NCBI RefSeq assembly: GCF_014696345.1
Contig: NZ_JACJPY010000050.1
Coordinates: 1 to 33,170, forward strand
Source: Pseudanabaena cinerea FACHB-1277
Lineage (GTDB): Bacteria; Cyanobacteriota; Cyanobacteriia; Pseudanabaenales; Pseudanabaenaceae
Direction of reading: 5' to 3'
DNA: 33,170 nt
Each line of letters starts with the position of its first letter. Position 1 is the stretch's first letter. A program made the position numbers and the translations under genes. Below the pieces are notes generated by a model. It had not been told where the DNA came from. It made no database searches and saw nothing but the letters and a program-made list of their open reading frames with translations. Positions 21,949 through 33,170 of this stretch are shown here, piece after piece.

Positions 21949-22322
21949 TAAAGGTGTAGTCACACTTTTGCGGTTTGGTATTAATGGTTTTGGCGGATAG
22001 ACAAAAGTTAAGTTTAATGTGTGATTTTGACTCAGGGGTAGAAATAAAATAATATAGAAATTAAGAAATATCTATTTAGTCCTTCCCTTTACAGCTTTTA
22101 ACCAAAGCAATTATGTAGCATTTAGGAATTCAATTCGTAGCTTATTAGCATGAATCGAACAAAAATTACTGCCAATTTGCGTAAATAGAGGTAAAGAGCA
22201 TCTCACTTAAGCGCAGCCTTAATTCGGCATAGAGACAATGAGTTTTAGACTCTTAGCTCTATCAGATGTTCTTAATTGAGAGGCTCTCGGTAAATGTGAG
22301 GGTCATCTGCACTCATTTGGGC

Positions 22323-22327
22323 GGAGG
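22323..22327 (+). promoter_or_regulatory. Ribosome binding site that fixes the PatA-like start
   Basis: GGAGG ends at 22327, so the GTG at 22327 overlaps it and cannot be the start. The next in-frame GTG at 22336 is 8 nt away and is preferred. Confidence 0.7.
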
Positions 22328-22335
22328 TGAAACCA

Positions 22336-23601
22336 GTGCAAGGCAAATTTCACAACCAACAACTGCTAGCTCTGTTAAAAAAACTAGAGAGCGTAGCTTT
22401 TTCAGGAACTGTAAACCTTGACTTAGAAATCAAGGATCAGAATTTATCGAAATGTATTCTGGCTTGGCGCAATGGCTCACTGATGTATGCAGTGCCATGT
22501 CTGCCCGATATCCATGCAATTATTGACTTTCTTGAACATAAATTGCATCGTCAATGGATTGCACCAGCCGTTGTCTTCGCTTCGCGGCAGCTTAAAGACG
22601 AACATTCAACCCAAGAATTAATAGAACGTTTGATCGCCATGGAACTTTTCACATGGGGGGAGATTGAAGCAGTTTTCTATGCTCAAACGATTGTGCGTTT
22701 GGAACAGATTTGGGAATGTGGAGGCAGTTTTCAAATTGAAAAGAATGTCAATCTGGAACTACGGAGTGCATGGAAAGTTGGCGATTTATTATTAGAACTA
22801 GCTCACCGTAAAGATCGTTGGGCAGCGATTAAGCCAGTGATCCCTTCGCTCAAACTAATTCCCATGATTGCTACGGCAACAGAATCATCACCTATGCCCC
22901 ACAGCGTCAAAAAGCACTTGGTGGAATGGGTGGATGGCAAGCGATCGCTCTGTGACATTTCCCAAGGTTTAGACAAAGATCCTTTGCAAATCGCTCAGTT
23001 TTATGCAAAGTGGTCAAAGGAAAAATGGGTTAATTTCATTTCCGAAGAAACCAACGCCATGCCATTAATTTTGGCGATCGATGATAGTGCCGTTGTCCAG
23101 CAAATGATTCAACGCACGCTCTCTTCTTTTTGTCGGGTTGCAGTGGCAAGCAATGCCGTTGATGGACTAAGCGTGATGTATCACCAACCTGTAAAGTTGC
23201 TGTTGCTAGATGTGATGATGCCTGAAATCGATGGCTTAGAAGTTTGTCGTACCATTCGCCGTATGCCGCAATTTAGCAATTTGCCAATCATTATGTTGAC
23301 GGGTAAAGATGGCTTCTTTGACAAAATGAAGGGTAAAATGGCTGGCTCCAATGAGTACATTACCAAGCCCTTTGAAGCCTCAAGCCTCAAGCAGTTGGTG
23401 CGCCAATACTTAAATTTGCCGATGCCGATGACAGATTCCAATGCAGAAGCCATATCAGAAACCAAAACTCAAGCAAGATCACCAGCCAGATCAGCAGGAC
23501 AGACCGTAGATCAGCTTCTAGGCAATAGGGCAACTGCTTGTAAGCCTAAAGATACTTCCGATGATCAAATGGCAACCAGCATTCAGTATCAATGTAGTTA
23601 G
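22336..23601 (+). CDS. PatA/PixG-like response regulator (DUF4388/PATAN + receiver)
   Basis: A 421-residue protein from GTG 22336. The N-terminal PATAN/DUF4388-type region (about 1-230) opens with FHNQQLLALLKKLESVAFSGTVNL and contains the ILAWRNGSLMYA element. The receiver (about 235-360) has IDDSA, the phospho-acceptor Asp292 in LLLLDVMMPEIDG and Lys of ITKPFE. The last 60 residues are low complexity. In Synechocystis the same type (PixG) heads the pix phototaxis operon and others control pilus motility. It is the first gene of this cluster and is the likely output regulator, not DNA-binding by sequence. Confidence 0.9.
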   Translation: MQGKFHNQQLLALLKKLESVAFSGTVNLDLEIKDQNLSKCILAWRNGSLMYAVPCLPDIHAIIDFLEHKLHRQWIAPAVVFASRQLKDEHSTQELIERLIAMELFTWGEIEAVFYAQTIVRLEQIWECGGSFQIEKNVNLELRSAWKVGDLLLELAHRKDRWAAIKPVIPSLKLIPMIATATESSPMPHSVKKHLVEWVDGKRSLCDISQGLDKDPLQIAQFYAKWSKEKWVNFISEETNAMPLILAIDDSAVVQQMIQRTLSSFCRVAVASNAVDGLSVMYHQPVKLLLLDVMMPEIDGLEVCRTIRRMPQFSNLPIIMLTGKDGFFDKMKGKMAGSNEYITKPFEASSLKQLVRQYLNLPMPMTDSNAEAISETKTQARSPARSAGQTVDQLLGNRATACKPKDTSDDQMATSIQYQCS

Positions 23602-23619
23602 TGGGGCGGTAGAGCGATT

Positions 23620-24753
23620 ATGTTATCTCAAGAACTTATCCCCAAATATTATGTAATCTTTTCACTGCATGGCTTGATCTATGGCATTGATGCGATCGCT
23701 GTAAAAGAGATCTTCTCCTTACCAGAACTAGCGATCGCCATTGATGCACCCAAAGATATCATTGGTTTGCTAAATTTGCGGGGGCATTTAGTTCCAGTAA
23801 TGGATCTCAATCATCGTTTTGGTTATCCATTCCAAGAATATCAGGTGAGTGATTCCGTAATTGCCCTCGAACAGGATGGGGAAATGCTGGGGATCGTGGT
23901 TAATCAAGTGCGGGAGGTGGTAGCGATCGCCCCTGATGCAATAGAAACCACAATTTATACACGCCATCCTTCTAAGCTAATTAGCAGTGTGGCAAAGCTG
24001 CAATCAGAGACGATCGCCTTATTAAAAACTGCATCTTTGTTTGATTGTGTGGAAATTGTCGATGGGGCGATTACTACCAAAGAAATCACCGAGCTTCATC
24101 ATGATTCCCATTTTGAGGATCATCATAATGATTACCGTAATGATCACTATGAGCATCATGCCGATCATTACGGTGAACACCATTGGATCGAGAAACAAGG
24201 CAACTTTTTTGATACCTTCTGTCCCCATATCACTGAGCGAGAGCGGCTGACTTTTCATACCCGTGCAGAACAATTGATGCAAGCTTCCCAGCGCAATGAC
24301 TTTATGGGTTTGCGTCCCCTCGCCGTAGTCGGTTTGGGCGATGAATACTTTGGTTTAGATTTGGAAGTCGTCCGCGAATTTACGGAATTTCACAAAGTCA
24401 CACCAATTCCCTGCTGTCCCGACCATGTGGTCGGCAATATCAATTTGCGGGGCGAAATCGTAACGCTGATTGATATTCGCCGCGCTCTGCATATGCAGAT
24501 CGATGAACACCATCCCACTTCTAAAGCGATCGTTGTCCATATAGACGATCTGATCATGGGCATTCCTGTGGAGAAGGTATTTGATGTGCTGTATTTGCAA
24601 AAGAGCGACATCAAGCCCAATCCCATGGCAACCAGTGAAGGCGATCGCGACTATTTACAGGGGACAGTTCTGTATCAAGAAAAAATGATGGGAATTTTGA
24701 ACCTTGCCAAAATTTTTGCAGAAGGGAATCTTTCGGTAAACGAAGAAGTTTAG
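23620..24753 (+). CDS. cheW: Double CheW-domain coupling protein with His-rich linker
   Basis: A 377-residue scaffold linking receptor to CheA. CheW domain 1 is about residues 8-150 (YYVIFSLHGLIYGIDAIAVKEIF, IIGLLNLRGHLVPVMDL). CheW domain 2 is about 225-370 (PLAVVGLGDEYFGLDLEVVREF, VVGNINLRGEIVTLIDIR, VVHIDDLIMGIPVEKVFDVL). Between them, residues 160-188 hold 11 His in 29 positions with Asp/Glu/Tyr between, a possible metal-binding or pH-sensitive linker. Ordinary CheW proteins have one domain of about 150 residues. Gene position is PatA-like then cheW then receptor, as in pix operons. Confidence 0.92.
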   Translation: MLSQELIPKYYVIFSLHGLIYGIDAIAVKEIFSLPELAIAIDAPKDIIGLLNLRGHLVPVMDLNHRFGYPFQEYQVSDSVIALEQDGEMLGIVVNQVREVVAIAPDAIETTIYTRHPSKLISSVAKLQSETIALLKTASLFDCVEIVDGAITTKEITELHHDSHFEDHHNDYRNDHYEHHADHYGEHHWIEKQGNFFDTFCPHITERERLTFHTRAEQLMQASQRNDFMGLRPLAVVGLGDEYFGLDLEVVREFTEFHKVTPIPCCPDHVVGNINLRGEIVTLIDIRRALHMQIDEHHPTSKAIVVHIDDLIMGIPVEKVFDVLYLQKSDIKPNPMATSEGDRDYLQGTVLYQEKMMGILNLAKIFAEGNLSVNEEV

Positions 24754-24757
24754 CCAA

Positions 24758-24799
24758 TCACCAATCACCAATCACCAATCACCAATCACCAATCACCAA
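24758..24799 (+). repeat. Six tandem TCACCAA heptamers before the chemoreceptor gene
   Basis: Six exact copies follow the cheW stop almost at once and end 14 bp before the receptor ATG. Same unit, same copy number and same orientation relative to the downstream gene as before groEL. AGGA at 24802-24805 is the only Shine-Dalgarno candidate for the receptor. Confidence 0.95.
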
Positions 24800-24813
24800 T
24801 TAGGACTAAAACT

Positions 24814-26265
24814 ATGTTTAATAATTTGAAACTCAGGGGCAAAATGCTATTTGGCTATTCTGTACCAGTGGCTTTGATTGCAGGATTGGCGATCGGGGTA
24901 TATACCACATCGCAAATTGTTGATAAGAGCTTTGAGCACGCCTTGGTTGCTAATGATCGCGCTAGAGTTTCCGATGCCTTGGAATTAAGAGTTTCGCAAA
25001 TTGCTCGACAGTCACGGGGCTATGCCCTCACTCTGGATAAGGAGTTATTGGATCGCTATGAAAGCGGCGTAAAAAACCTGAATGAAGTGCAAGATAAGGC
25101 TTTGGTATTGGTGAAAGATGCTTTGCCTGAGCAAAAGGAACGCATGAATAAAATGGTAGCTTTTACTGATCAGTACGAAAAAATCACGCGCAGTCAGATT
25201 GAGGCGGCGAAAGCGGGCAACCGTAAATTGGTGGTGGATAATGTGGAACAGGGCGCAGAACTCCTTAAATCCTTTGAAACTGTGATGAAGGAGTTTGACA
25301 CGCGCCAAGCTGAGGTGATTAAGAATGCGGAAAACACCACCAAGAATGCTCTGGGGCTTTTGGTTACAATGTCGGTACTTGGCGCTTTGGCTTCTTTGGT
25401 AATTGCTTTAATAGTTGCCTTTGTGATTTCTTCGGCGATCGCCAACACCCTCAACCAAGCCGCCAGCGAAATCGCCAGTTCTTCAGCACAAATTGCCAGC
25501 GCAGTCGAGGAACAAGAGCGCACCGTCTCGCAACAGGCAAGCTCGGTCAATGAAACCTCAACGACAATGGGCGAGCTTGGCACATCCTCAAGGCAATCGG
25601 CAGAACAGGCGGAAGTCTCAGCTTCAGGCGCACGCCATGCCCTCTCGCTCACCGAAAGCGGCACAAAGGCAGTCCGTCAAACCCTCGATGAGATGACCAC
25701 CCTCAAGGATAAAGTCGGTGCGATCGCCGAACAAATTCTCAGACTTAGTGAACAAACCAACCAGATCGGCAATATTTCAGGACTTGTGGGCGACCTCGCC
25801 AACCAAACCAATATGCTGGCGCTCAATGCTGCTGTAGAAGCCGCCCGTGCGGGAGATCACGGCAAAGGCTTTGCGGTAGTTGCCGAAGAAATTCGTAAAC
25901 TTGCCGATCAAAGCAAGAAGTCCGCCGAAAAAATCAACACCCTCGTTTCCGACATTCAAACGGCGATTAACTCCACCGTCATGGTCACGGACGAAGGCAA
26001 CAAGACCGTCAACGAAGGTCTATCCCTCGCTCGCAGCATGGCAGAAGCCTTTACAGGCGTTTCTGACTCGATCAATAACGTCTTTATCAGCAGTCAACAA
26101 ATTTCGCTCAATGCCAAACAACAGGCTGTAGCCATCAATCAAGTAGTGGAAGCGATGAATGCCATCAACCTTGGCTCAAGGGAAACCGCATCAGGTGTAT
26201 CGCAAATCAAGGTCAGCACCCATCAGCTTAATGCGGCGGCGCAAAAGTTACAGGCAGTGGTGTAG
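24814..26265 (+). CDS. Methyl-accepting chemotaxis protein
   Basis: A 483-residue transmembrane receptor. TM1 is about residues 12-32. The extracytoplasmic domain (about 33-185) is all-helical with the [18 protein letters not shown] pattern of CHASE3-like sensors. TM2 is about 188-212. The signalling hairpin has its conserved tip [21 protein letters not shown], then [17 protein letters not shown] (about 325-365). I see no HAMP domain between TM2 and the coiled coil. Glu/Gln/Ser-rich stretches on both flanks could be methylation sites for the CheR and CheB of this cluster. Two conventional transmembrane helices and no GAF: this is not a PixJ-type photoreceptor by sequence. Confidence 0.93.
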
Positions 26266-26267
26266 AC

Positions 26268-26365
26268 CCTCACCCCTAGCCCCTCTCCCATTGAGGGAGA
26301 GGGGGACTAGAAAGTTGATGGCTCCCCTTCTCCCCTAGTGGGAGAAGGGGCTGGGGGATGAGGGG
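26268..26365. repeat. MITE-like imperfect palindrome between receptor and cheA
   Basis: The left end CCTCACCCCTAGCCCCTCTC (26268 on) is inversely repeated by the right end GGGAGAAGGGGCTGGGGG (26339 on, followed by ATGAGGGG). Internal GGGAGAGGGGGA and TCCCCTTCTCCC arms add further pairing. It resembles a dispersed cyanobacterial intergenic palindrome, about 100 bp, with no ORF. It could reduce read-through to cheA. Confidence 0.75.
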
Positions 26366-26390
26366 CAAGTATTAATAAGGAGTGCCTATT

Positions 26391-28979
26391 ATGTATATCC
26401 AAGATGAAGAACTGAGAAATGTCTTTAAGATTGCTAGTGAAGAACATATTCAGAAGTTAGAAGAAGACTTCCTATTTCTTGAGAAAAATCCACAGGATAA
26501 GGCGCACTTAGAGGAAGCATTGCGAGAAGCGCATACCCTCAAAGGTGATGCGCGGATGCTGGGTATTTCGGGCGTGGAGACGCTCACCCACCAAGTTGAA
26601 GATCTGCTGGGAGCCGCGAAACGGGGAGAGTTGGAAATATCAGGCAAAATGCTCGATCGCCTATATTTGGGACTTGATGCGATCAGGCAATTGGTGCATG
26701 AGGCAATCACCGATGAGGAGGCACGAATTAGTATTTTTGAAGTGCTGGCGCAGTTAATGGGAGCCGAGGTGCAGGTGGCAGAGCCGACCCAGGAAAGCGA
26801 TCCCTTTAGCGATCCCTTTGAAGATACTGGCGATGTGATGATGAATACGCAGCCTGCGGTCGAAAATTTACAAGCACTACCAAATAATATTGTGCCTATT
26901 GGGGCTATGCCTGAAATAGTGAGCCTTAATAGAGTGAATGGTAATGGTCATAATGGTCATAATGGTCATCAAAACAATGGCAATAATGGCGTAGCGATCG
27001 CCCCTCTGTCCGAAAATTCTACCAACCCCAAAACTAACCCCACCATCCCTGCGGCTCCTCCCTTAAATCCCAATCCTCAGCCAGTGCGATCGCCTGAAAA
27101 ACCGCCTGAAAGTGCAATCCATCCTGATCTGCGATCGGCTAATGGCAATATTAATAGCACTAATGCCATTAACAACAGTTTAAACGCCACCTTTAGCGAA
27201 ACTGATAAATATCGGATTGATACAATTCGCGTTGATCCCCAGAAGCTCGATGCCCTGATGACCCAAGTTGGTGAGCTAACCGTTACCAAAATCCGCATCT
27301 CCCAAAGACTTACGGAAATTGAAGAAATTATTAGTCTCTGGGAAGAATGGAGCCGCGATACCTTTGTCAGCCGCCTTGCCCTCGAAAAAAATGGCAAAGT
27401 TCTATCTGATATTTCTCTAAGTAAAGAAGACGATCGCCATAGTCCTAAAAACAGCAACTTCCACCGCCGCCTCGAAGAAAGACTCGATCGCCTTGGCAAT
27501 CAACTCAATCATCTGCGCCGCAATACTTACGAAGACACCGCCCGACTCGACTCGATCGCAGGGGATCTCAAGGAAGGCATTCGCACTTTGCGATTACTGC
27601 CCCTTGCCACTGTTTTTAACTTATTTCCGCGCATGGTGCGCGATCTGGCACGACAACAAGCCAAAGAGGTCGAGCTAATCATCGAAGGCGGCGACACCTC
27701 CGCCGACAAACATATTCTCGAAGAAATCAAAGATCCTTTGATGCACCTGATCCGCAATGCGATCGATCATGGCATCGAATTGCCCTCCGAACGCGAAAAG
27801 GCTGGCAAGCCCAGAGTCGCCACAATCCGCCTCAAGGGTTTGCAAAATGCCCGCAGTGTGATCATCGAAATCAGTGACGATGGCAGAGGGCTAAATATAG
27901 ATCAAATTCGTCAAGCCGCAATCCAGCGCGGTATTTGCCGAGAAGAAGAGTTAGCCTCCATGTCGGAAGCGCAAATTCACAATTTAGTATTTACGTCAGG
28001 CTTTTCCACTCGCCTTGCTGTTACCCAAATGTCGGGGCGCGGCGTGGGCTTGGACGTAGTTCGCACCAATATCGAACGGCTCAAGGGCGATGTTTGGGTA
28101 GAATCTCGCGCGGGGCAAGGTTGCCTGTTCCGTATGCAGATTGACACCACCCTCGCCACTACCCATGTCCTGATTGCCGCCGTCAAAGATACGCCCTATG
28201 CCATGCCTGTGGAATTTGTGCAAACTACGCGCCTGATTCCCCGTCAAGATATTTTTTCCATCGAAGGCAGTCACACGATTACGATCGATGATCATCCCGT
28301 ATCCGTCGCTTGGCTATCGGATTTGTTAGAACTAGATGTCAGCGATCGCAGTTTCAATCACAAGTCCTTGCCCTGTATCATCCTCAAAATCGGAGTCGAA
28401 AGACTAGGCTTAATCGTTGATGCCCTACTTGATGAGCAAGATGTGGTGATAAAACAGCAAAGCAAGCTGCTCAAAAGGATTCGTAACGTCAGTGGCGCGA
28501 CTATTTTAGGCACAGGCGAAGTCTGCATGGTACTCAACCCATCGGACTTATTAAAATCAGCGCGGAAACGTGCAGGATTTGTGTCAGCGAGTAAACTGTT
28601 AGAATCCGTACAACGCAAGAAAATAGTCTTAATGGTCGAAGATTCGATAACAGTCCGCACCCAAGTCAAACGCATTCTCGAAAATGCGGGTTATGAAGTC
28701 ATTGCCGCCGTTGACGGCTTAGATGGCTACGAAAAACTCCGTACCAAATCCGTTGATGCCGTAGTTTCTGATATTCAAATGCCGCACCTTGATGGGCTAG
28801 AACTGACCGCCCGTATCCGTCAGCACAAAGAATACACCGATCTGCCCGTAATTTTAGTTACGTCCCTTGCCTCTGAAGAGGACAAACGCAGGGGTGTAGA
28901 GGTGGGGGCAAATGCCTATATTGTTAAGAGTGCCTTCGATCAAAATGTGCTTCTAGAGACATTAGGGAGACTGATCTAA
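26391..28979 (+). CDS. cheA: Hybrid CheA chemotaxis histidine kinase with C-terminal receiver
   Basis: The central kinase of the cluster, 862 residues from ATG 26391, which has AAGGAG at 26377-26382; the GTG at 26382 overlaps that site. Order: Hpt about 1-110 with His48 in REAHTLKGDARMLG; a disordered linker about 150-265, containing NGNGHNGHNGHQNNGNNG; dimerisation about 275-400; HATPase with LIRNAIDHGIELPSEREKAGKP, DDGRGL and GFSTR...MSGRGVGLDVV; CheW-like domain about 580-735; receiver about 745-862 with Asp794 (VVSDIQMPHLDG). No separate CheY/CheB-binding P2 domain is evident. The fused receiver may act as a phosphate sink or be the output. Stop abuts cheB. Confidence 0.96.
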   Translation: MYIQDEELRNVFKIASEEHIQKLEEDFLFLEKNPQDKAHLEEALREAHTLKGDARMLGISGVETLTHQVEDLLGAAKRGELEISGKMLDRLYLGLDAIRQLVHEAITDEEARISIFEVLAQLMGAEVQVAEPTQESDPFSDPFEDTGDVMMNTQPAVENLQALPNNIVPIGAMPEIVSLNRVNGNGHNGHNGHQNNGNNGVAIAPLSENSTNPKTNPTIPAAPPLNPNPQPVRSPEKPPESAIHPDLRSANGNINSTNAINNSLNATFSETDKYRIDTIRVDPQKLDALMTQVGELTVTKIRISQRLTEIEEIISLWEEWSRDTFVSRLALEKNGKVLSDISLSKEDDRHSPKNSNFHRRLEERLDRLGNQLNHLRRNTYEDTARLDSIAGDLKEGIRTLRLLPLATVFNLFPRMVRDLARQQAKEVELIIEGGDTSADKHILEEIKDPLMHLIRNAIDHGIELPSEREKAGKPRVATIRLKGLQNARSVIIEISDDGRGLNIDQIRQAAIQRGICREEELASMSEAQIHNLVFTSGFSTRLAVTQMSGRGVGLDVVRTNIERLKGDVWVESRAGQGCLFRMQIDTTLATTHVLIAAVKDTPYAMPVEFVQTTRLIPRQDIFSIEGSHTITIDDHPVSVAWLSDLLELDVSDRSFNHKSLPCIILKIGVERLGLIVDALLDEQDVVIKQQSKLLKRIRNVSGATILGTGEVCMVLNPSDLLKSARKRAGFVSASKLLESVQRKKIVLMVEDSITVRTQVKRILENAGYEVIAAVDGLDGYEKLRTKSVDAVVSDIQMPHLDGLELTARIRQHKEYTDLPVILVTSLASEEDKRRGVEVGANAYIVKSAFDQNVLLETLGRLI

Positions 28980-30074
28980 ATGCCTAAGTCACCGATCCGC
29001 GTATTACTGGTTGACGATTCCCACATTGCCCTAGAGATTTTGCAACGGATTCTCTCCCAAGCCCCTGATATTTTAGTAGTAGGCTGTGCGAAGGATGGCA
29101 TCGAAGCCCTAGCCCTCTTGCCTCAAGTTAATCCTGATGTGATCTGCACTGATTACCATATGCCCCGCATGAATGGTTTGCAGCTTACAGAATTAGTGAT
29201 GATGAAATATCCGCGTCCCATTTTGGTAATTAGCATTTCCGTACAGACTGAAGATGCGCGAACTATTTTTAAAATGCTGGAATCGGGTGCTGTCGATGTA
29301 TTTCCCAAGCCCCCCAGTGGCTTGTTTGAAGATTACAAAAAAATTCAACAGGATTTAATCGAACGGATTCGGGTTTTATCAGGGGTGTCGGTATTCACCC
29401 GCACTAAGCGCAATACTTTACTGTCTCTCGAAAAACAAACCTATAAAGAACCCGCCCCACCACCCGTATTTTTTGCGATCGCCCCTGATACCCAAATCGT
29501 CACCATCGGCGCATCCACAGGTGGTCCCCAAGCCATGCAAACCCTATTAACCCAAATCCCTGTAGGATTTCCTGCGCCCATCGTCTGTGTACAGCACATT
29601 AGCCGTGGCTTTTTAATGGGATTGATCGATTGGCTCGGCTCCCTCTGCCATCTGCCTGTCAAGATTGCCGTCCAAGGCACAATGCCCGAAGCTGGCACGA
29701 TTTACTTCGCACCAGAGGATCGCCAACTGGAATTTGACGATCGCGGCAGATTTTTCTACACTGCTGCCTTCCCTGTGGATGGACATTGCCCATCGGTGAC
29801 AGTTACTTTTCAAGCGGCCGCAAAAATCTATGGGGCGCGAAGTATTGGCATTTTGCTCACAGGCATGGGACGCGATGGCGCAACGGGCTTAATGGCAATT
29901 CGCAAAGCGGGCGGCGTGACGATCGCCCAAAATGAAGCCACCAGTATCGTGTTTGGGATGCCACAGGTAGCGATCAAAATGGGAGCCGCCCAAAATGTTC
30001 TCGCCATCCAAGAAATAGCCCCCTTTGTGATGAATCACATTCTCACCACTCAAACCAGTTCGATTTCTTTCTAG
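28980..30074 (+). CDS. cheB: Chemotaxis response regulator protein-glutamate methylesterase
   Basis: Removes methyl groups from receptor glutamates when phosphorylated by CheA. 364 residues. The receiver is about 1-120 with DD at 12-13 and Asp58 (VICTDYHMPRMNG). The esterase domain is about 165-355, with the triad Ser179 (GASTGGPQ), His206 (CVQHISRG) and Asp299 (GMGRDGATG). Spacing matches the enteric enzyme. The ATG follows the cheA stop with no gap, so the two are coupled. CheB is absent from the well-known cyanobacterial pix and tax operons; its presence implies methylation-based adaptation here. Confidence 0.96.
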   Translation: MPKSPIRVLLVDDSHIALEILQRILSQAPDILVVGCAKDGIEALALLPQVNPDVICTDYHMPRMNGLQLTELVMMKYPRPILVISISVQTEDARTIFKMLESGAVDVFPKPPSGLFEDYKKIQQDLIERIRVLSGVSVFTRTKRNTLLSLEKQTYKEPAPPPVFFAIAPDTQIVTIGASTGGPQAMQTLLTQIPVGFPAPIVCVQHISRGFLMGLIDWLGSLCHLPVKIAVQGTMPEAGTIYFAPEDRQLEFDDRGRFFYTAAFPVDGHCPSVTVTFQAAAKIYGARSIGILLTGMGRDGATGLMAIRKAGGVTIAQNEATSIVFGMPQVAIKMGAAQNVLAIQEIAPFVMNHILTTQTSSISF

Positions 30075-30123
30075 TTACCCAATCATCTTGTAAGTTAAAG
30101 CATATAAATCCTGAAATACCTCT

Positions 30124-31185
30124 ATGAAGTCAATCATTTCGCTATTTTCTGGTTGTGGAGGATTAGATTTAGGTTTTTCTAAAGCAGGTTTTGATGTGGT
30201 TTGGGCGAATGAGTTTGACAAAGCTATCTGGGAAACCTATGAAAAAAATCATCGGCATACTTTTTTGGATCGGCGAGATCTTAGACAAATAGCTTCACAG
30301 GATATTCCTGAATGTATCGGCATTATTGGCGGATCGCCTTGTCAGAGTTGGAGTGAGGCAGGAACTCAAAGAGGTTTTAATGATGAGCGAGGACAATTAT
30401 TCATGGAATATGTGCGCGTCCTCAAAGATAAACAGCCCTTATTTTTTCTGGCGGAAAATGTTTCAGGAATGCTGCACAAAAAACATAGTGGAGCTTTGGC
30501 AAATATTATGACTGCCTTTGAAGAAGCTGGTTATTCCATTACTTACAAGTTAGTTGATGCCAAGGATTACGATGTGCCTCAATCTCGGAAAAGAATTATC
30601 TTTATCGGTTTTCGGGCTGATTTAGGCAAGAAATTTGCATTCAAGGCATTAGCCACATCTCCTGATATTCCTAACTTAAAACAAGCGATCGCCGATTTAC
30701 AAGGCAAAGAAAAACCAGCGATCGGGCGTAGCAAGTCTAATATTCATGATTGCAATATCCCTAATCATGAATATATGCAGGGTGATTTTTCAAGTATGTA
30801 TATGTCGAGAAATCGGGTGCGTAAATGGGATGAGCCATCTTTCACTATTCAAGCGGGTGGTCGTCATGCACCGATCCATCCCCAAGCCAATCGCATGATT
30901 CGGATCAGTCAAGACAAATGGATCTTTGATCCAGAGTCACCATTGCCCTATCGGCGGTTAACGGTGAGGGAATGCGCCAGAATCCAAACTTTTCCCGATG
31001 ATTTTATTTTTTATTATCAAGATCTAACCCATGCTTACAAAATGATTGGCAATGCAGTTCCTGTCAATTTGGCATACGCGATCGCGCAATCGATTAATCA
31101 ACAGTTGAAGTTAGATTTCTCGTTAGAGAACTATCAAAATCAGGAGCAAGAATATTTTAAAATTCCTTCAGGAATATCTAGCTAA
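30124..31185 (+). CDS. DNA cytosine-5 methyltransferase, HaeIII/NgoPII-like (inferred GGCC)
   Basis: A 353-residue C5 methyltransferase with motif I SLFSGCGGLDLGFSKAGF, motif IV GGSPCQSWSEAG (catalytic Cys73), LAENVSGM (motif VI ENV) and QSRKRIIFIGF (motif VIII). In the target region SSMYMSRNRVRKWDEPSFTI is close to what I recall of M.HaeIII, and motifs IX/X (RRLTVRECARIQTFPDDF, YKMIGNAVPVNLAYAIA) are intact. GGCC methylation is inferred from that and from the NgoPII-type endonuclease 15 bp downstream. AT-richer than the che genes but with at least one full HIP1 site (near 30687), so acquisition may be old. Confidence 0.93.
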   Translation: MKSIISLFSGCGGLDLGFSKAGFDVVWANEFDKAIWETYEKNHRHTFLDRRDLRQIASQDIPECIGIIGGSPCQSWSEAGTQRGFNDERGQLFMEYVRVLKDKQPLFFLAENVSGMLHKKHSGALANIMTAFEEAGYSITYKLVDAKDYDVPQSRKRIIFIGFRADLGKKFAFKALATSPDIPNLKQAIADLQGKEKPAIGRSKSNIHDCNIPNHEYMQGDFSSMYMSRNRVRKWDEPSFTIQAGGRHAPIHPQANRMIRISQDKWIFDPESPLPYRRLTVRECARIQTFPDDFIFYYQDLTHAYKMIGNAVPVNLAYAIAQSINQQLKLDFSLENYQNQEQEYFKIPSGISS

Positions 31186-31200
31186 ATATATGGAGGCAAT

Positions 31201-32088
31201 ATGATAGATCAAGCTGCAACAAATATTCTAAAAGCAATTAAGGTAGTAGTCGAGTGTGGCATTCCCAATGTAATTGATTTTTATCGTAGTGAAAATCGGA
31301 TTAACTCCGTTGGTGACGCTTTAAAATTATTTGCTAAGGATATATTTGCTGATTCCGTAAATATTAATAACTTGCATCAAAAAGAAGAAGCTCACAGAAA
31401 AGTATTTTCTTGGGGAGGCAATGCCAATAATCCGCCAGATTTTATGATTAAAGGTGGTGATGCTGTCGAAGTTAAAAAAATTACATCGACCAAATCCAGA
31501 ATTGCGCTCAATAGCTCTTATCCATCGGCAAAACTTTTTGCAAATAGTCCTTTATTGCTATCAGAATGTCGAAATTGTGAAGATTGGCAAGAGAAAGATA
31601 TTATTTATTGTATTGGTTGTATTGATGGCAAAGATACTAATCAGCGCTTATCTTCACTATGGCTAATTTATGGTGATTGCTATGCAGCTAGTAAGGATTG
31701 TTATGAACGGATTAAAGCAACTATTACTCAAGGAATTCAAGCGATTTCAAATGTAGAACTTAGTCCAACTAATGAACTAGCTAGAGTGAATAAAGTCGAT
31801 CCTTTAGGTATCACTAACTTAAGAGTTAGAGGAATGTGGGATATTGCCCACCCTGCTACTTTATATAGTTATTTAAATCTTGATTCAAATCAAAAATCTT
31901 TTCCAAAATCTTTTCAGATGATCGTCTTAATGACAGCATCAAAATATAATTCTTTCCCTAATCTTGATAAGGAATATATAGAGTTATTAAAACATCAAAA
32001 ACACATAGGGATTAGAGATATAGAAATTAAATCTCCCAATAATACTATGCAGAGTATTTTAGCCAAGCTATTCATTTACGAGATATAA
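31201..32088 (+). CDS. Type II restriction endonuclease, NgoPII family (inferred GGCC)
   Basis: A 295-residue protein matching R.NgoPII as I recall it: NSVGDALKLFAKDIFADS, KVFSWGGNANNPPDFMIKGG, then the core DAVEVKKI with the PD-(D/E)XK residues (PDF...EVKK), WQEKDIIYCIG, ELARVNKVDPLGITNLRVRGMW. It would cut GGCC, protected by the neighbouring methyltransferase. GGAGG at 31191-31195 precedes the ATG by 5 nt. AT-rich, and I see no HIP1 site in it, unlike most genes here, which suggests recent transfer. No frameshift or early stop is visible, so it is probably active. Confidence 0.92.
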   Translation: MIDQAATNILKAIKVVVECGIPNVIDFYRSENRINSVGDALKLFAKDIFADSVNINNLHQKEEAHRKVFSWGGNANNPPDFMIKGGDAVEVKKITSTKSRIALNSSYPSAKLFANSPLLLSECRNCEDWQEKDIIYCIGCIDGKDTNQRLSSLWLIYGDCYAASKDCYERIKATITQGIQAISNVELSPTNELARVNKVDPLGITNLRVRGMWDIAHPATLYSYLNLDSNQKSFPKSFQMIVLMTASKYNSFPNLDKEYIELLKHQKHIGIRDIEIKSPNNTMQSILAKLFIYEI

Positions 32089-32090
32089 AA

Positions 32091-33170
32091 ATGGTAACTA
32101 TTCCTCAATCGGTTTTAGATAAATTAAAAGCAGCGATCGCTGAGCGTTTTGGAATTTACATCCGTCCTCAAGATGATGCGCCTTTTTGCAAAAAAATTCA
32201 TGGCAGAGTGCAGGAATTACGACTCTCCACCTACGAATCCTATTGCGACCTTTTAAACAGTGCCTCCGATATGAGTCACTCAGAATGGCGCGAACTCGTT
32301 CGCCAAATCACGATCTCTGAAACCTATTTCATGCGCGATAAAGGGCATATCAATTTATTGCAAAATAATATATTGCCTGAAATTATTAAAGCGCAGCAAA
32401 ATACGAAGACTCTGCGTATTTGGAGTGCGGGCTGCTCAACGGGAGAAGAAGCCTATTCCATCGCCATTTTATTACAGGAATTAATTCCTGATCCTCAGAA
32501 CTGGAAATTAAAGATTGTCGGGACTGATCTCAATCCTGAAGTAATTCAAAAAGCAAAGCAGGCAGTATATGGCGATTGGTCATTACGGAGCCTCACCCCA
32601 AAACAAAAAAGTCTCTACTTCACCCAGCAGGGCAATCTCTGGCGGCTCCATGAGAATCTGTGCAAAATGGCAGTCTTTTATTCTAATAACTTAGTGGATG
32701 AAGATTTTAGTCGGTCATCTTCCGAATTTTCTAATTTTGATTTGGTTTTGTGCCGCAATGTCTTTATTTACTTTGAGCCGCAGGCTATTAAAAAAGTTTT
32801 ACATCGTTTTCAAGTAGCACTTAAAACTAACTGCTACTTGATTACAGGTCACATGGAACTGCATGGGCAAAATCTTGATGGATTTAAGGTCAATGTGTTC
32901 CCTGATGCAGTGGTTTATCAAAAATGCGATCGCCCCAATGCCTATAGCACCGAATCCTATGGCAGTCCTGATTTCCGCAATTATCCTATTTCCCATGCTA
33001 GTAATTTTAATCCATCAGCCAATAATTCCTTTAATCAGAAAATAGATTATACAAATCATTTATTCTATGCCCCAAGTTCTCCTAACTCGAACAGTTCTGA
33101 GAAGTCAGTAACTCCTGCCGATCCCCTTAGTTCCACTTGGGAATCCTATCGCCATGCTTCCAATAACTAT
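32091..33170 (+). CDS. cheR: Chemotaxis protein methyltransferase CheR, 3' end outside the window
   Basis: An open frame of 360 codons from ATG 32091 to the window edge without a stop. N-terminal helical domain (FGIYIRPQDDAPFCKKIHGR), then ITISETYFMRDKGH and SAM-binding IWSAGCSTGEEAYSIAILLQEL, VGTDLNPEVIQKAKQAVYGDWSLR, FDLVLCRNVFIYFEP and LITGHMEL. After about residue 275 comes a Ser/Asn/Pro-rich linker, ending STWESYRHASNNY, which looks like the start of TPR repeats as in long CheR proteins. The ATG is 2 nt after the endonuclease stop with only a weak Shine-Dalgarno sequence, so translation depends on that gene. Methylates receptor glutamates with SAM. Confidence 0.93.
   Translation, partial: MVTIPQSVLDKLKAAIAERFGIYIRPQDDAPFCKKIHGRVQELRLSTYESYCDLLNSASDMSHSEWRELVRQITISETYFMRDKGHINLLQNNILPEIIKAQQNTKTLRIWSAGCSTGEEAYSIAILLQELIPDPQNWKLKIVGTDLNPEVIQKAKQAVYGDWSLRSLTPKQKSLYFTQQGNLWRLHENLCKMAVFYSNNLVDEDFSRSSSEFSNFDLVLCRNVFIYFEPQAIKKVLHRFQVALKTNCYLITGHMELHGQNLDGFKVNVFPDAVVYQKCDRPNAYSTESYGSPDFRNYPISHASNFNPSANNSFNQKIDYTNHLFYAPSSPNSNSSEKSVTPADPLSSTWESYRHASNNY

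What the first reader, a model, noticed from the sequence alone, without database searches (positions are those of the whole stretch)
30075..32090. Restriction-modification pair lodged between cheB and cheR
A complete HaeIII/NgoPII-like system is placed in the che operon in the same direction, and cheR begins 2 nt after the endonuclease stop. cheR expression is then tied to the R-M genes. It could be a recent insertion that happened to preserve expression, or a linkage that protects the R-M genes from loss. I see no repeats or integrase at its borders.
Basis: partly seen in the sequence, partly recalled or inferred. Interest (0 to 1): 0.6.

Follow-up and report, generated by a model that had tools for sequence, protein, structure and literature searches.

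The report
Restriction genes inserted in chemotaxis operon
A two-gene DNA-cutting and DNA-protecting system has slipped between two neighbouring chemotaxis genes of a cyanobacterium and left both readable; a sister species still has the two genes touching, and such operon insertions are already known for this kind of system.

Summary
A complete Type II restriction-modification pair (M.HaeIII-like cytosine methyltransferase, NgoPII-family endonuclease; predicted GGCC) lies between cheB and cheR in the same direction, 2 nt before cheR. It is a derived insertion. The nearest congener held (CheB 98% identical) has the empty site: cheB stop and cheR ATG overlap there (ATGGTAA), and the window has 2,029 nt (30062-32090) where that genome has 9 nt. 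Of 28 more distant cyanobacterial CheR loci examined, 10 have cheB adjacent; none has M or R. No target duplication or integrase was seen. cheR is intact (547 aa, as in the sister) and conserved (dN/dS 0.057), so it is probably still expressed. Whether it depends on read-through from the R-M genes, or gives them stability, is untested. 'Operon insertion' of R-M systems and replacement of a short target segment are both in print: a new member of a known kind. An unexpected point: GGCC is about 16-fold depleted in sampled stretches of the genus (one GC-rich, probably foreign contig left out), also where no HaeIII-like methyltransferase was found, and the sister carries another such methyltransferase elsewhere. 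The pair probably entered a genome already purged of its target.

The parts
28980..30074 (+). cheB; its last codons and its stop lie in the inserted block (ends ...TSSISF, sister ends ...TSSASSW)
30062..32090 (+). inserted block of 2,029 nt; the sister genome G002 has 9 nt here
   Evidence: blastn collinearity 24178-30061 and 32091-33170 with G002; junction letters
30124..31185 (+). M gene, 353 aa, M.HaeIII-like C5-cytosine methyltransferase, predicted GGCC
   Evidence: PF00145 2.5e-97; M.HaeIII 1DCT 1.3e-113
31201..32088 (+). R gene, 295 aa, NgoPII-family endonuclease, predicted GGCC; conserved PD(79-80)...E90-V-K92 retained
   Evidence: PF09521 1.7e-104; alignment A1 of 14 sequences
32091..33170 (+). 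cheR (first 360 codons; continues on contig C29 to 547 aa)
23620..28979 (+). upstream genes of the same che cluster: cheW-like, MCP, cheA

Best explanation
A complete GGCC-type Type II R-M pair of probable cyanobacterial origin was inserted by non-transposon (illegitimate) recombination at the cheB/cheR junction, replacing about nine nucleotides before the cheR start. The block brought its own stop for cheB and ends 2 nt after the R stop, so both che proteins stayed intact apart from the last residues of CheB. The overlapping cheB-stop/cheR-start of the ancestor was exchanged for an R-stop/AA/cheR-start arrangement. cheR is most likely now translated from che transcripts that read through M and R, possibly with an added promoter near M. 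The R-M pair protects the cell against GGCC-bearing DNA and may resist its own loss by post-segregational killing. Shown: the insertion, its polarity, its borders, intact genes, pairwise purifying selection on cheR. Inferred: donor group, recombination route, co-transcription, enzyme activity and GGCC specificity.
For: Empty site in G002: cheB and cheR overlap by 7 nt, and G002 has no match to R at E 0.001. Over 24178-33170, collinearity with G002 at 90-91% nt identity breaks only between 30061 and 32091. Outgroups: of 28 class-wide CheR loci (L056-L083), 12 have cheB upstream on the same strand, 10 of them within 150 nt, including one of the same family (G027, L070), and none of the 28 has an M or R hit. 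R-M homologs lie elsewhere: 28 fetched R loci (L005-L009, L040-L054, L084-L091; some are the same place) show no cheB or cheR hit. Over full length M and R share one nearest relative among the loci fetched, Phormidesmis priestleyi L051 (M 73%, R 74% and 60% in two pieces). Codon third-position GC is 0.35 for M and 0.22 for R against 0.50 for cheB. cheR is 547 aa in both species with dN/dS 0.057, and 0.029 in the first 278 codons.
Against: Only one genome holds the orthologous empty site; no third species of the 26 genus genomes searched has this che operon. Other che operons do have genes or long gaps between cheB and cheR (L072; L095), and in 16 of the 28 CheR loci no cheB lies within about 1.5 kb. 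A partial M in L040 is 76% identical over 123 aa while its R is 57%, so the shared nearest relative is not clear-cut. cheR itself is AT-richer than cheB, so composition alone proves little. The selection values are pairwise and do not isolate the branch after insertion. No expression or methylation data exist here. The predicted fold of R matched nothing in the PDB at E below 0.28, so the nuclease assignment rests on the sequence family.
Confidence: 0.9

Rival explanations
1. The R-M pair is ancestral in this operon and was precisely lost in the sister species.
For: One deletion would also explain the two-species comparison.
Against: 10 of 28 distant loci, one in the same family, have cheB next to cheR, and none of the 28 has M or R. 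Deletion would have to create an overlapping stop/start. No fetched R-M locus lies beside cheB or cheR.
Confidence: 0.05
2. Selected linkage: the R-M pair is kept here because co-expression with the che operon is useful (for example restriction tuned to motility state), or because addiction to the R-M genes preserves cheR.
For: Same strand, 2-nt gap, intact R-M genes and a conserved cheR. The literature proposes that operon insertion may impose operon maintenance through post-segregational killing (PMC4615327 section 8; PMC10273834 passage).
Against: Seen in one genome only. A neutral insertion that left the che proteins intact predicts the same picture.
Confidence: 0.2
3. The pair arrived as part of a recognisable mobile element (IS, integron, prophage) whose ends are now unrecognisable.
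For: Inverted matches of 8 nt (30072/32093) and 9 nt (30082/32169) lie near the two borders. Homologs occur on plasmids such as pFV1.
Against: Shuffles of the two border stretches reach an 8-nt inverted match in 65 of 1000 (the 9-nt match lies outside the stretch tested). No exact direct repeat of 8 nt or more between the border regions. The only other ORFs of 60 aa or more in the block lie inside M and R in other frames.
Confidence: 0.08

Closest known systems
Operon insertion of R-M systems (PabI-family pairs in putative glutamate and histidine operons of Helicobacter/Campylobacter; PMC4615327 section 8 read, PMC10273834 passage seen; the survey they cite, Furuta et al. 2010, was not held)
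   Same: R-M pair on the same strand inside a functionally linked gene cluster
   Different: Here the host cluster is a chemotaxis operon of a cyanobacterium, the system is NgoPII/HaeIII type, and the borders are known to the nucleotide from an empty site
R-M insertion replacing a short target segment (PabI pair in Staphylothermus hellenicus replaced a 62-bp segment; PMC4615327, passage seen)
   Same: Simple substitution of a short target
   Different: About 9 nt replaced here, directly before a start codon
NgoPII / MthTI / FnuDI isoschizomer group (PMC4081073, passages seen; pFV1 plasmid pair)
   Same: Same endonuclease family with an adjacent cytosine methyltransferase
   Different: M precedes R here, whereas in pFV1 R precedes M; 43% identity of R to the pFV1 protein

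Membership tests
Type II R-M system, NgoPII/HaeIII (GGCC) type | Endonuclease of family PF09521 | tested here: met
   1.7e-104 over the full profile
Type II R-M system, NgoPII/HaeIII (GGCC) type | Adjacent M.HaeIII-like C5-cytosine methyltransferase | tested here: met
   PF00145 and M.HaeIII 1.3e-113; gap 15 nt
Type II R-M system, NgoPII/HaeIII (GGCC) type | Catalytic residues kept in the endonuclease | tested here: met
   P79, D80, E90, V91, K92 agree with invariant or nearly invariant columns of A1; that these are the catalytic residues is inferred from the PD-(D/E)XK pattern (recalled)
Type II R-M system, NgoPII/HaeIII (GGCC) type | PD-(D/E)XK fold | tested here: inconclusive
   Model pLDDT 77; no PDB match with E below 0.28
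Type II R-M system, NgoPII/HaeIII (GGCC) type | Cleavage and methylation at GGCC | not testable with these tools
   Only indirect: GGCC is depleted in the stretches sampled, but equally in relatives without the pair
Operon insertion of an R-M system | R-M genes on the same strand between genes of one functional cluster | tested here: met
Operon insertion of an R-M system | Relative with the contiguous cluster (empty site) | tested here: met
   G002
Operon insertion of an R-M system | Co-transcription with the host operon | not testable with these tools
   No RNA data; the one terminator-like site in 29900-32400 is on the - strand
Insertion with long target duplication / IS-flanked R-M | Direct repeats of target or IS at both borders | tested here: not met
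   No exact direct repeat of 8 nt or more between the border regions

The most novel reading that the evidence does not exclude
The genus keeps GGCC scarce over long times while the modules that cut it come and go at different places with unrelated endonucleases. A genome purged of GGCC accepts a new GGCC R-M pair at low cost; here the new pair took over from the kind of module that the sister carries elsewhere and this genome lacks, and hooked itself into a che operon that now carries it.
Probability: 0.25. Interest if true: 0.55.

Novelty: new member of a known kind. Interest (0 to 1): 0.36.

Why it matters
It is a clean natural case, with filled and empty alleles in two close species, of an R-M system entering an operon without breaking it. 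The borders are defined to the nucleotide, so read-through expression, loss of translational coupling and operon maintenance by post-segregational killing can be tested directly. The scarcity of GGCC in the genus, whichever module is present, bears on whether site avoidance eases acquisition of new R-M systems.

Tried and rejected
Donor search: no close donor; the nearest pair is about 71% identical in DNA over 30143-31688. Plasmids gave 7 records and phages 1, each 33-43% identical in protein. Rfam found nothing at its gathering scores in 22000-33170 and ARAGORN found no tRNA in the window, so nothing points to tRNA-associated integration. The promoter-like scan was no better than shuffles (10 found, mean 9.3) and was not used. 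The border inverted match of 8 nt was tested and judged chance-like (65 of 1000 shuffles); a second of 9 nt (30082/32169) was not shuffled. The structure route failed: the R model has pLDDT 77 and no usable PDB match. The idea that GGCC depletion proves long residence of this R-M pair was rejected, because the sister without the pair is depleted too. HaeIII-type endonucleases (PF09556) as the usual partner of the genus's other HaeIII-like M genes were rejected: 2 of 58 genomes match, G012 of the genus among them but not G002.

Dropped rows: in the GGCC pools, genome G024 was left out (60 observed, 55.1 expected, GC 0.585, probably a foreign contig). With it, the pool without a HaeIII-like M would be 66 observed against 148.7 expected (ratio 0.44). 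That pool used 11 of the 15 genus genomes without such an M, G024 among them; the pool with M used 10 of 11, own genome included (G012 not given). One search was a first, coarser grouping with G024 inside (68 observed against 193.7), replaced. In one search hits under 50 bits were not printed.

Full report
What is there. The window is one whole contig (C126) of a 4.77-Mb genome. It is cyanobacterial by its neighbours: class-level relatives include a genome (G124) with a contig as long as Phormidesmis priestleyi NZ_LXYR01000001.1, and the window holds 64 copies of GCGATCGC, a repeat common in cyanobacteria (PMC4390886, start of abstract in the listing). Genes run cheW-like, MCP, cheA, cheB, M, R, cheR, each on the + strand. 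M is a PF00145 cytosine methyltransferase whose closest solved relative is M.HaeIII. R is a full-length member of PF09521, RE_NgoPII. PMC4081073 (passages seen) calls MthTI, NgoPII and FnuDI isoschizomers of common origin, gives GGCC for HaeIII, and names HaeIII, NgoPII and BsuRI together as an example of convergent evolution. GGCC for this pair is a prediction from these families.

Empty site. Of 26 genus genomes searched, own included, only G002 has another close copy of this CheB (98%); the next best are 34-37% over most of the length, or 43% over half of it. In G002 cheB and cheR overlap by 7 nt in the string ATGGTAA. DNA is collinear from window 24178 to 30061 (89.9% identity) and again from 32091 to 33170 (90.9%). 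Between them the window has 2,029 nt and G002 has 9 nt. G002 has no match to R. The inserted block supplies a new stop for cheB and ends 2 nt after the R stop. R is not truncated: its C-terminus aligns with those of relatives.

Polarity. In a class-wide sample of 388 genomes, 56 have a CheR match at 1e-60. I held 30 loci. Leaving out the window's own and G002's, 28 were examined. In 12 of 28 cheB lies upstream on the same strand. In 10 of 28 it is within 150 nt: L056, L057, L060, L061, L062, L070, L075, L079, L082, L083. L070 is from the same family; L056, L057 and L061 are from one genus; for L079 the distance is to the start of the alignment. In L063 the cheB frame is interrupted but a second piece lies next to cheR, and L072 has about 0.9 kb between. 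In the other 16 no cheB lies within about 1.5 kb. None of the 28 has an M or R hit. Conversely, 28 fetched R loci show no cheB or cheR hit; their flanks range from under 1.5 kb to 6 kb. The insertion is therefore derived.

How it got there. There is no exact direct repeat of 8 nt or more between the border regions, and the only other ORFs of 60 aa or more in the block lie inside M and R. The simplest route is illegitimate recombination with substitution of about 9 nt. The 9 nt could also have diverged by drift, so the exact size of the replaced segment is uncertain. Over full length the nearest relative of both M and R among the loci fetched is one locus in Phormidesmis priestleyi, which fits transfer of the pair as a unit among cyanobacteria; in that locus R is broken into two frames. 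Against this, the partial M of L040 is slightly closer (76% over 123 aa) while its R is 57%.

Consequence for cheR. The complete cheR, read across the contig overlap (101 nt, one mismatch), is 547 aa, as in G002. dN/dS between the two species is 0.031 for cheB, 0.080 for cheA, 0.057 for cheR and 0.029 for its first 278 codons, with dS 0.32-0.44. These are pairwise values and do not isolate the branch after insertion. By eye R has a good ribosome-binding site (GGAGG) before its start, M has none evident, and cheR has only a weak one. The ancestral overlap of cheB stop and cheR start suggests coupled translation, and the present TAA-AA-ATG could allow coupling to R instead; this is inference. 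No + strand terminator-like site was found in 29900-32400; three + strand promoter-like matches lie inside R, in a scan that is at chance level.

The GGCC surprise. In the window GGCC occurs 7 times against 136 expected from a Markov model, and in 36 kb of G002, which lacks this pair, 3 against 98. In stretches of 10 genus genomes with a HaeIII-like M, own and G002 included, the pool is 27 against 429.6; in 10 without one it is 6 against 93.6, from about 3.5 kb each (G024 dropped, see Tried and rejected). Other cyanobacterial che loci (L056-L083) show a ratio of 0.51. Eleven of 26 genus genomes, own included, have a HaeIII-like M at 1e-60, but only 4 of 26 have an NgoPII-type R. G002's own M (65% identical) sits at another place beside a convergent gene of 317 aa as called, with no Pfam match. 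Its 293-aa counterpart in G009 has no match in NCBIfam, PADLOC or PDB sequences. The window's genome appears to lack that module: it has a single M at 1e-60, and the matches to the genes flanking the G002 module lie on separate contigs without it. Avoidance thus does not date this insertion. PMC4687349 (section 19 read) reports that genomes often avoid sites of R-M systems encoded only by relatives and reads this as traces of lost systems. That fits, and suggests the pair entered a genome already poor in its target. Other GGCC enzymes of unrelated families were not searched for and could contribute.

Comparison with the literature. [quoted passage not shown] A passage of the same paper reports an R-M pair that replaced a 62-bp segment. 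PMC10273834 repeats the operon point (passage). The survey they cite, Furuta et al. 2010, was not held. A search for papers with restriction-modification, cheR, cheB and inserted gave three papers (listing only, not read), none of which by title or start of abstract concerns such an insertion. So the kind is known; this instance in a che operon was not found in print by that one search.

Verdict. It is a new member of a known kind, with a tidy two-allele comparison that makes tests easy.

Noticed in passing
L112:4725-5678 (G002:C8), L115:4665-5546, L117:1998-2873, L118:1215-2096: A gene of about 291-317 aa, convergent with and slightly overlapping a HaeIII-like M gene in 4 of the 7 congener loci fetched (grouped by eye on their first residues); no match where searched (Pfam for the G002 copy; NCBIfam, PADLOC and PDB sequences for the G009 copy). 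Candidate endonuclease of an undescribed family for GGCC.
   Followed up: partly
L052:4936-6831: In a Defluviitaleaceae MAG the homologous M and R are one open frame of 631 aa (M-R fusion) with what looks like a relict ribosome-binding site and start at the join; the ORFs on both sides are 5 and 8 nt away on the same strand, so it may be another operon insertion.
   Followed up: no
window 1-33170; L093-L094: GGCC and CCGG are both very scarce in the window (7 against 136 expected and 1 against 55.5) and in the G002 stretch (3 against 98 and 7 against 52).
   Followed up: partly
window about 24000-24180: The protein with two CheW stretches has a very histidine-rich linker (23 His in 377 aa), and window 24001-24177 is not aligned with the sister genome.
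   Followed up: no
L051:5992-6994: In Phormidesmis priestleyi, the nearest relative of this R-M pair, the R gene is split into two frames while M is intact.
   Followed up: no
window 30072-30079 and 32093-32100; 30082-30090 and 32169-32177: Inverted matches of 8 and 9 nt lie near the two borders of the insert; 65 of 1000 shuffles reach 8 nt in the stretch tested, which did not include the 9-nt match.
   Followed up: partly
window 33070-33170 and L003:8300-8400: The contig ends inside cheR; contig C29 carries on, overlapping by 101 nt with one mismatch.
   Followed up: yes
window before about 21981: Collinearity with the 36-kb G002 stretch fetched stops upstream of 21981; the earlier part of the window found no match in that stretch.
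   Followed up: no
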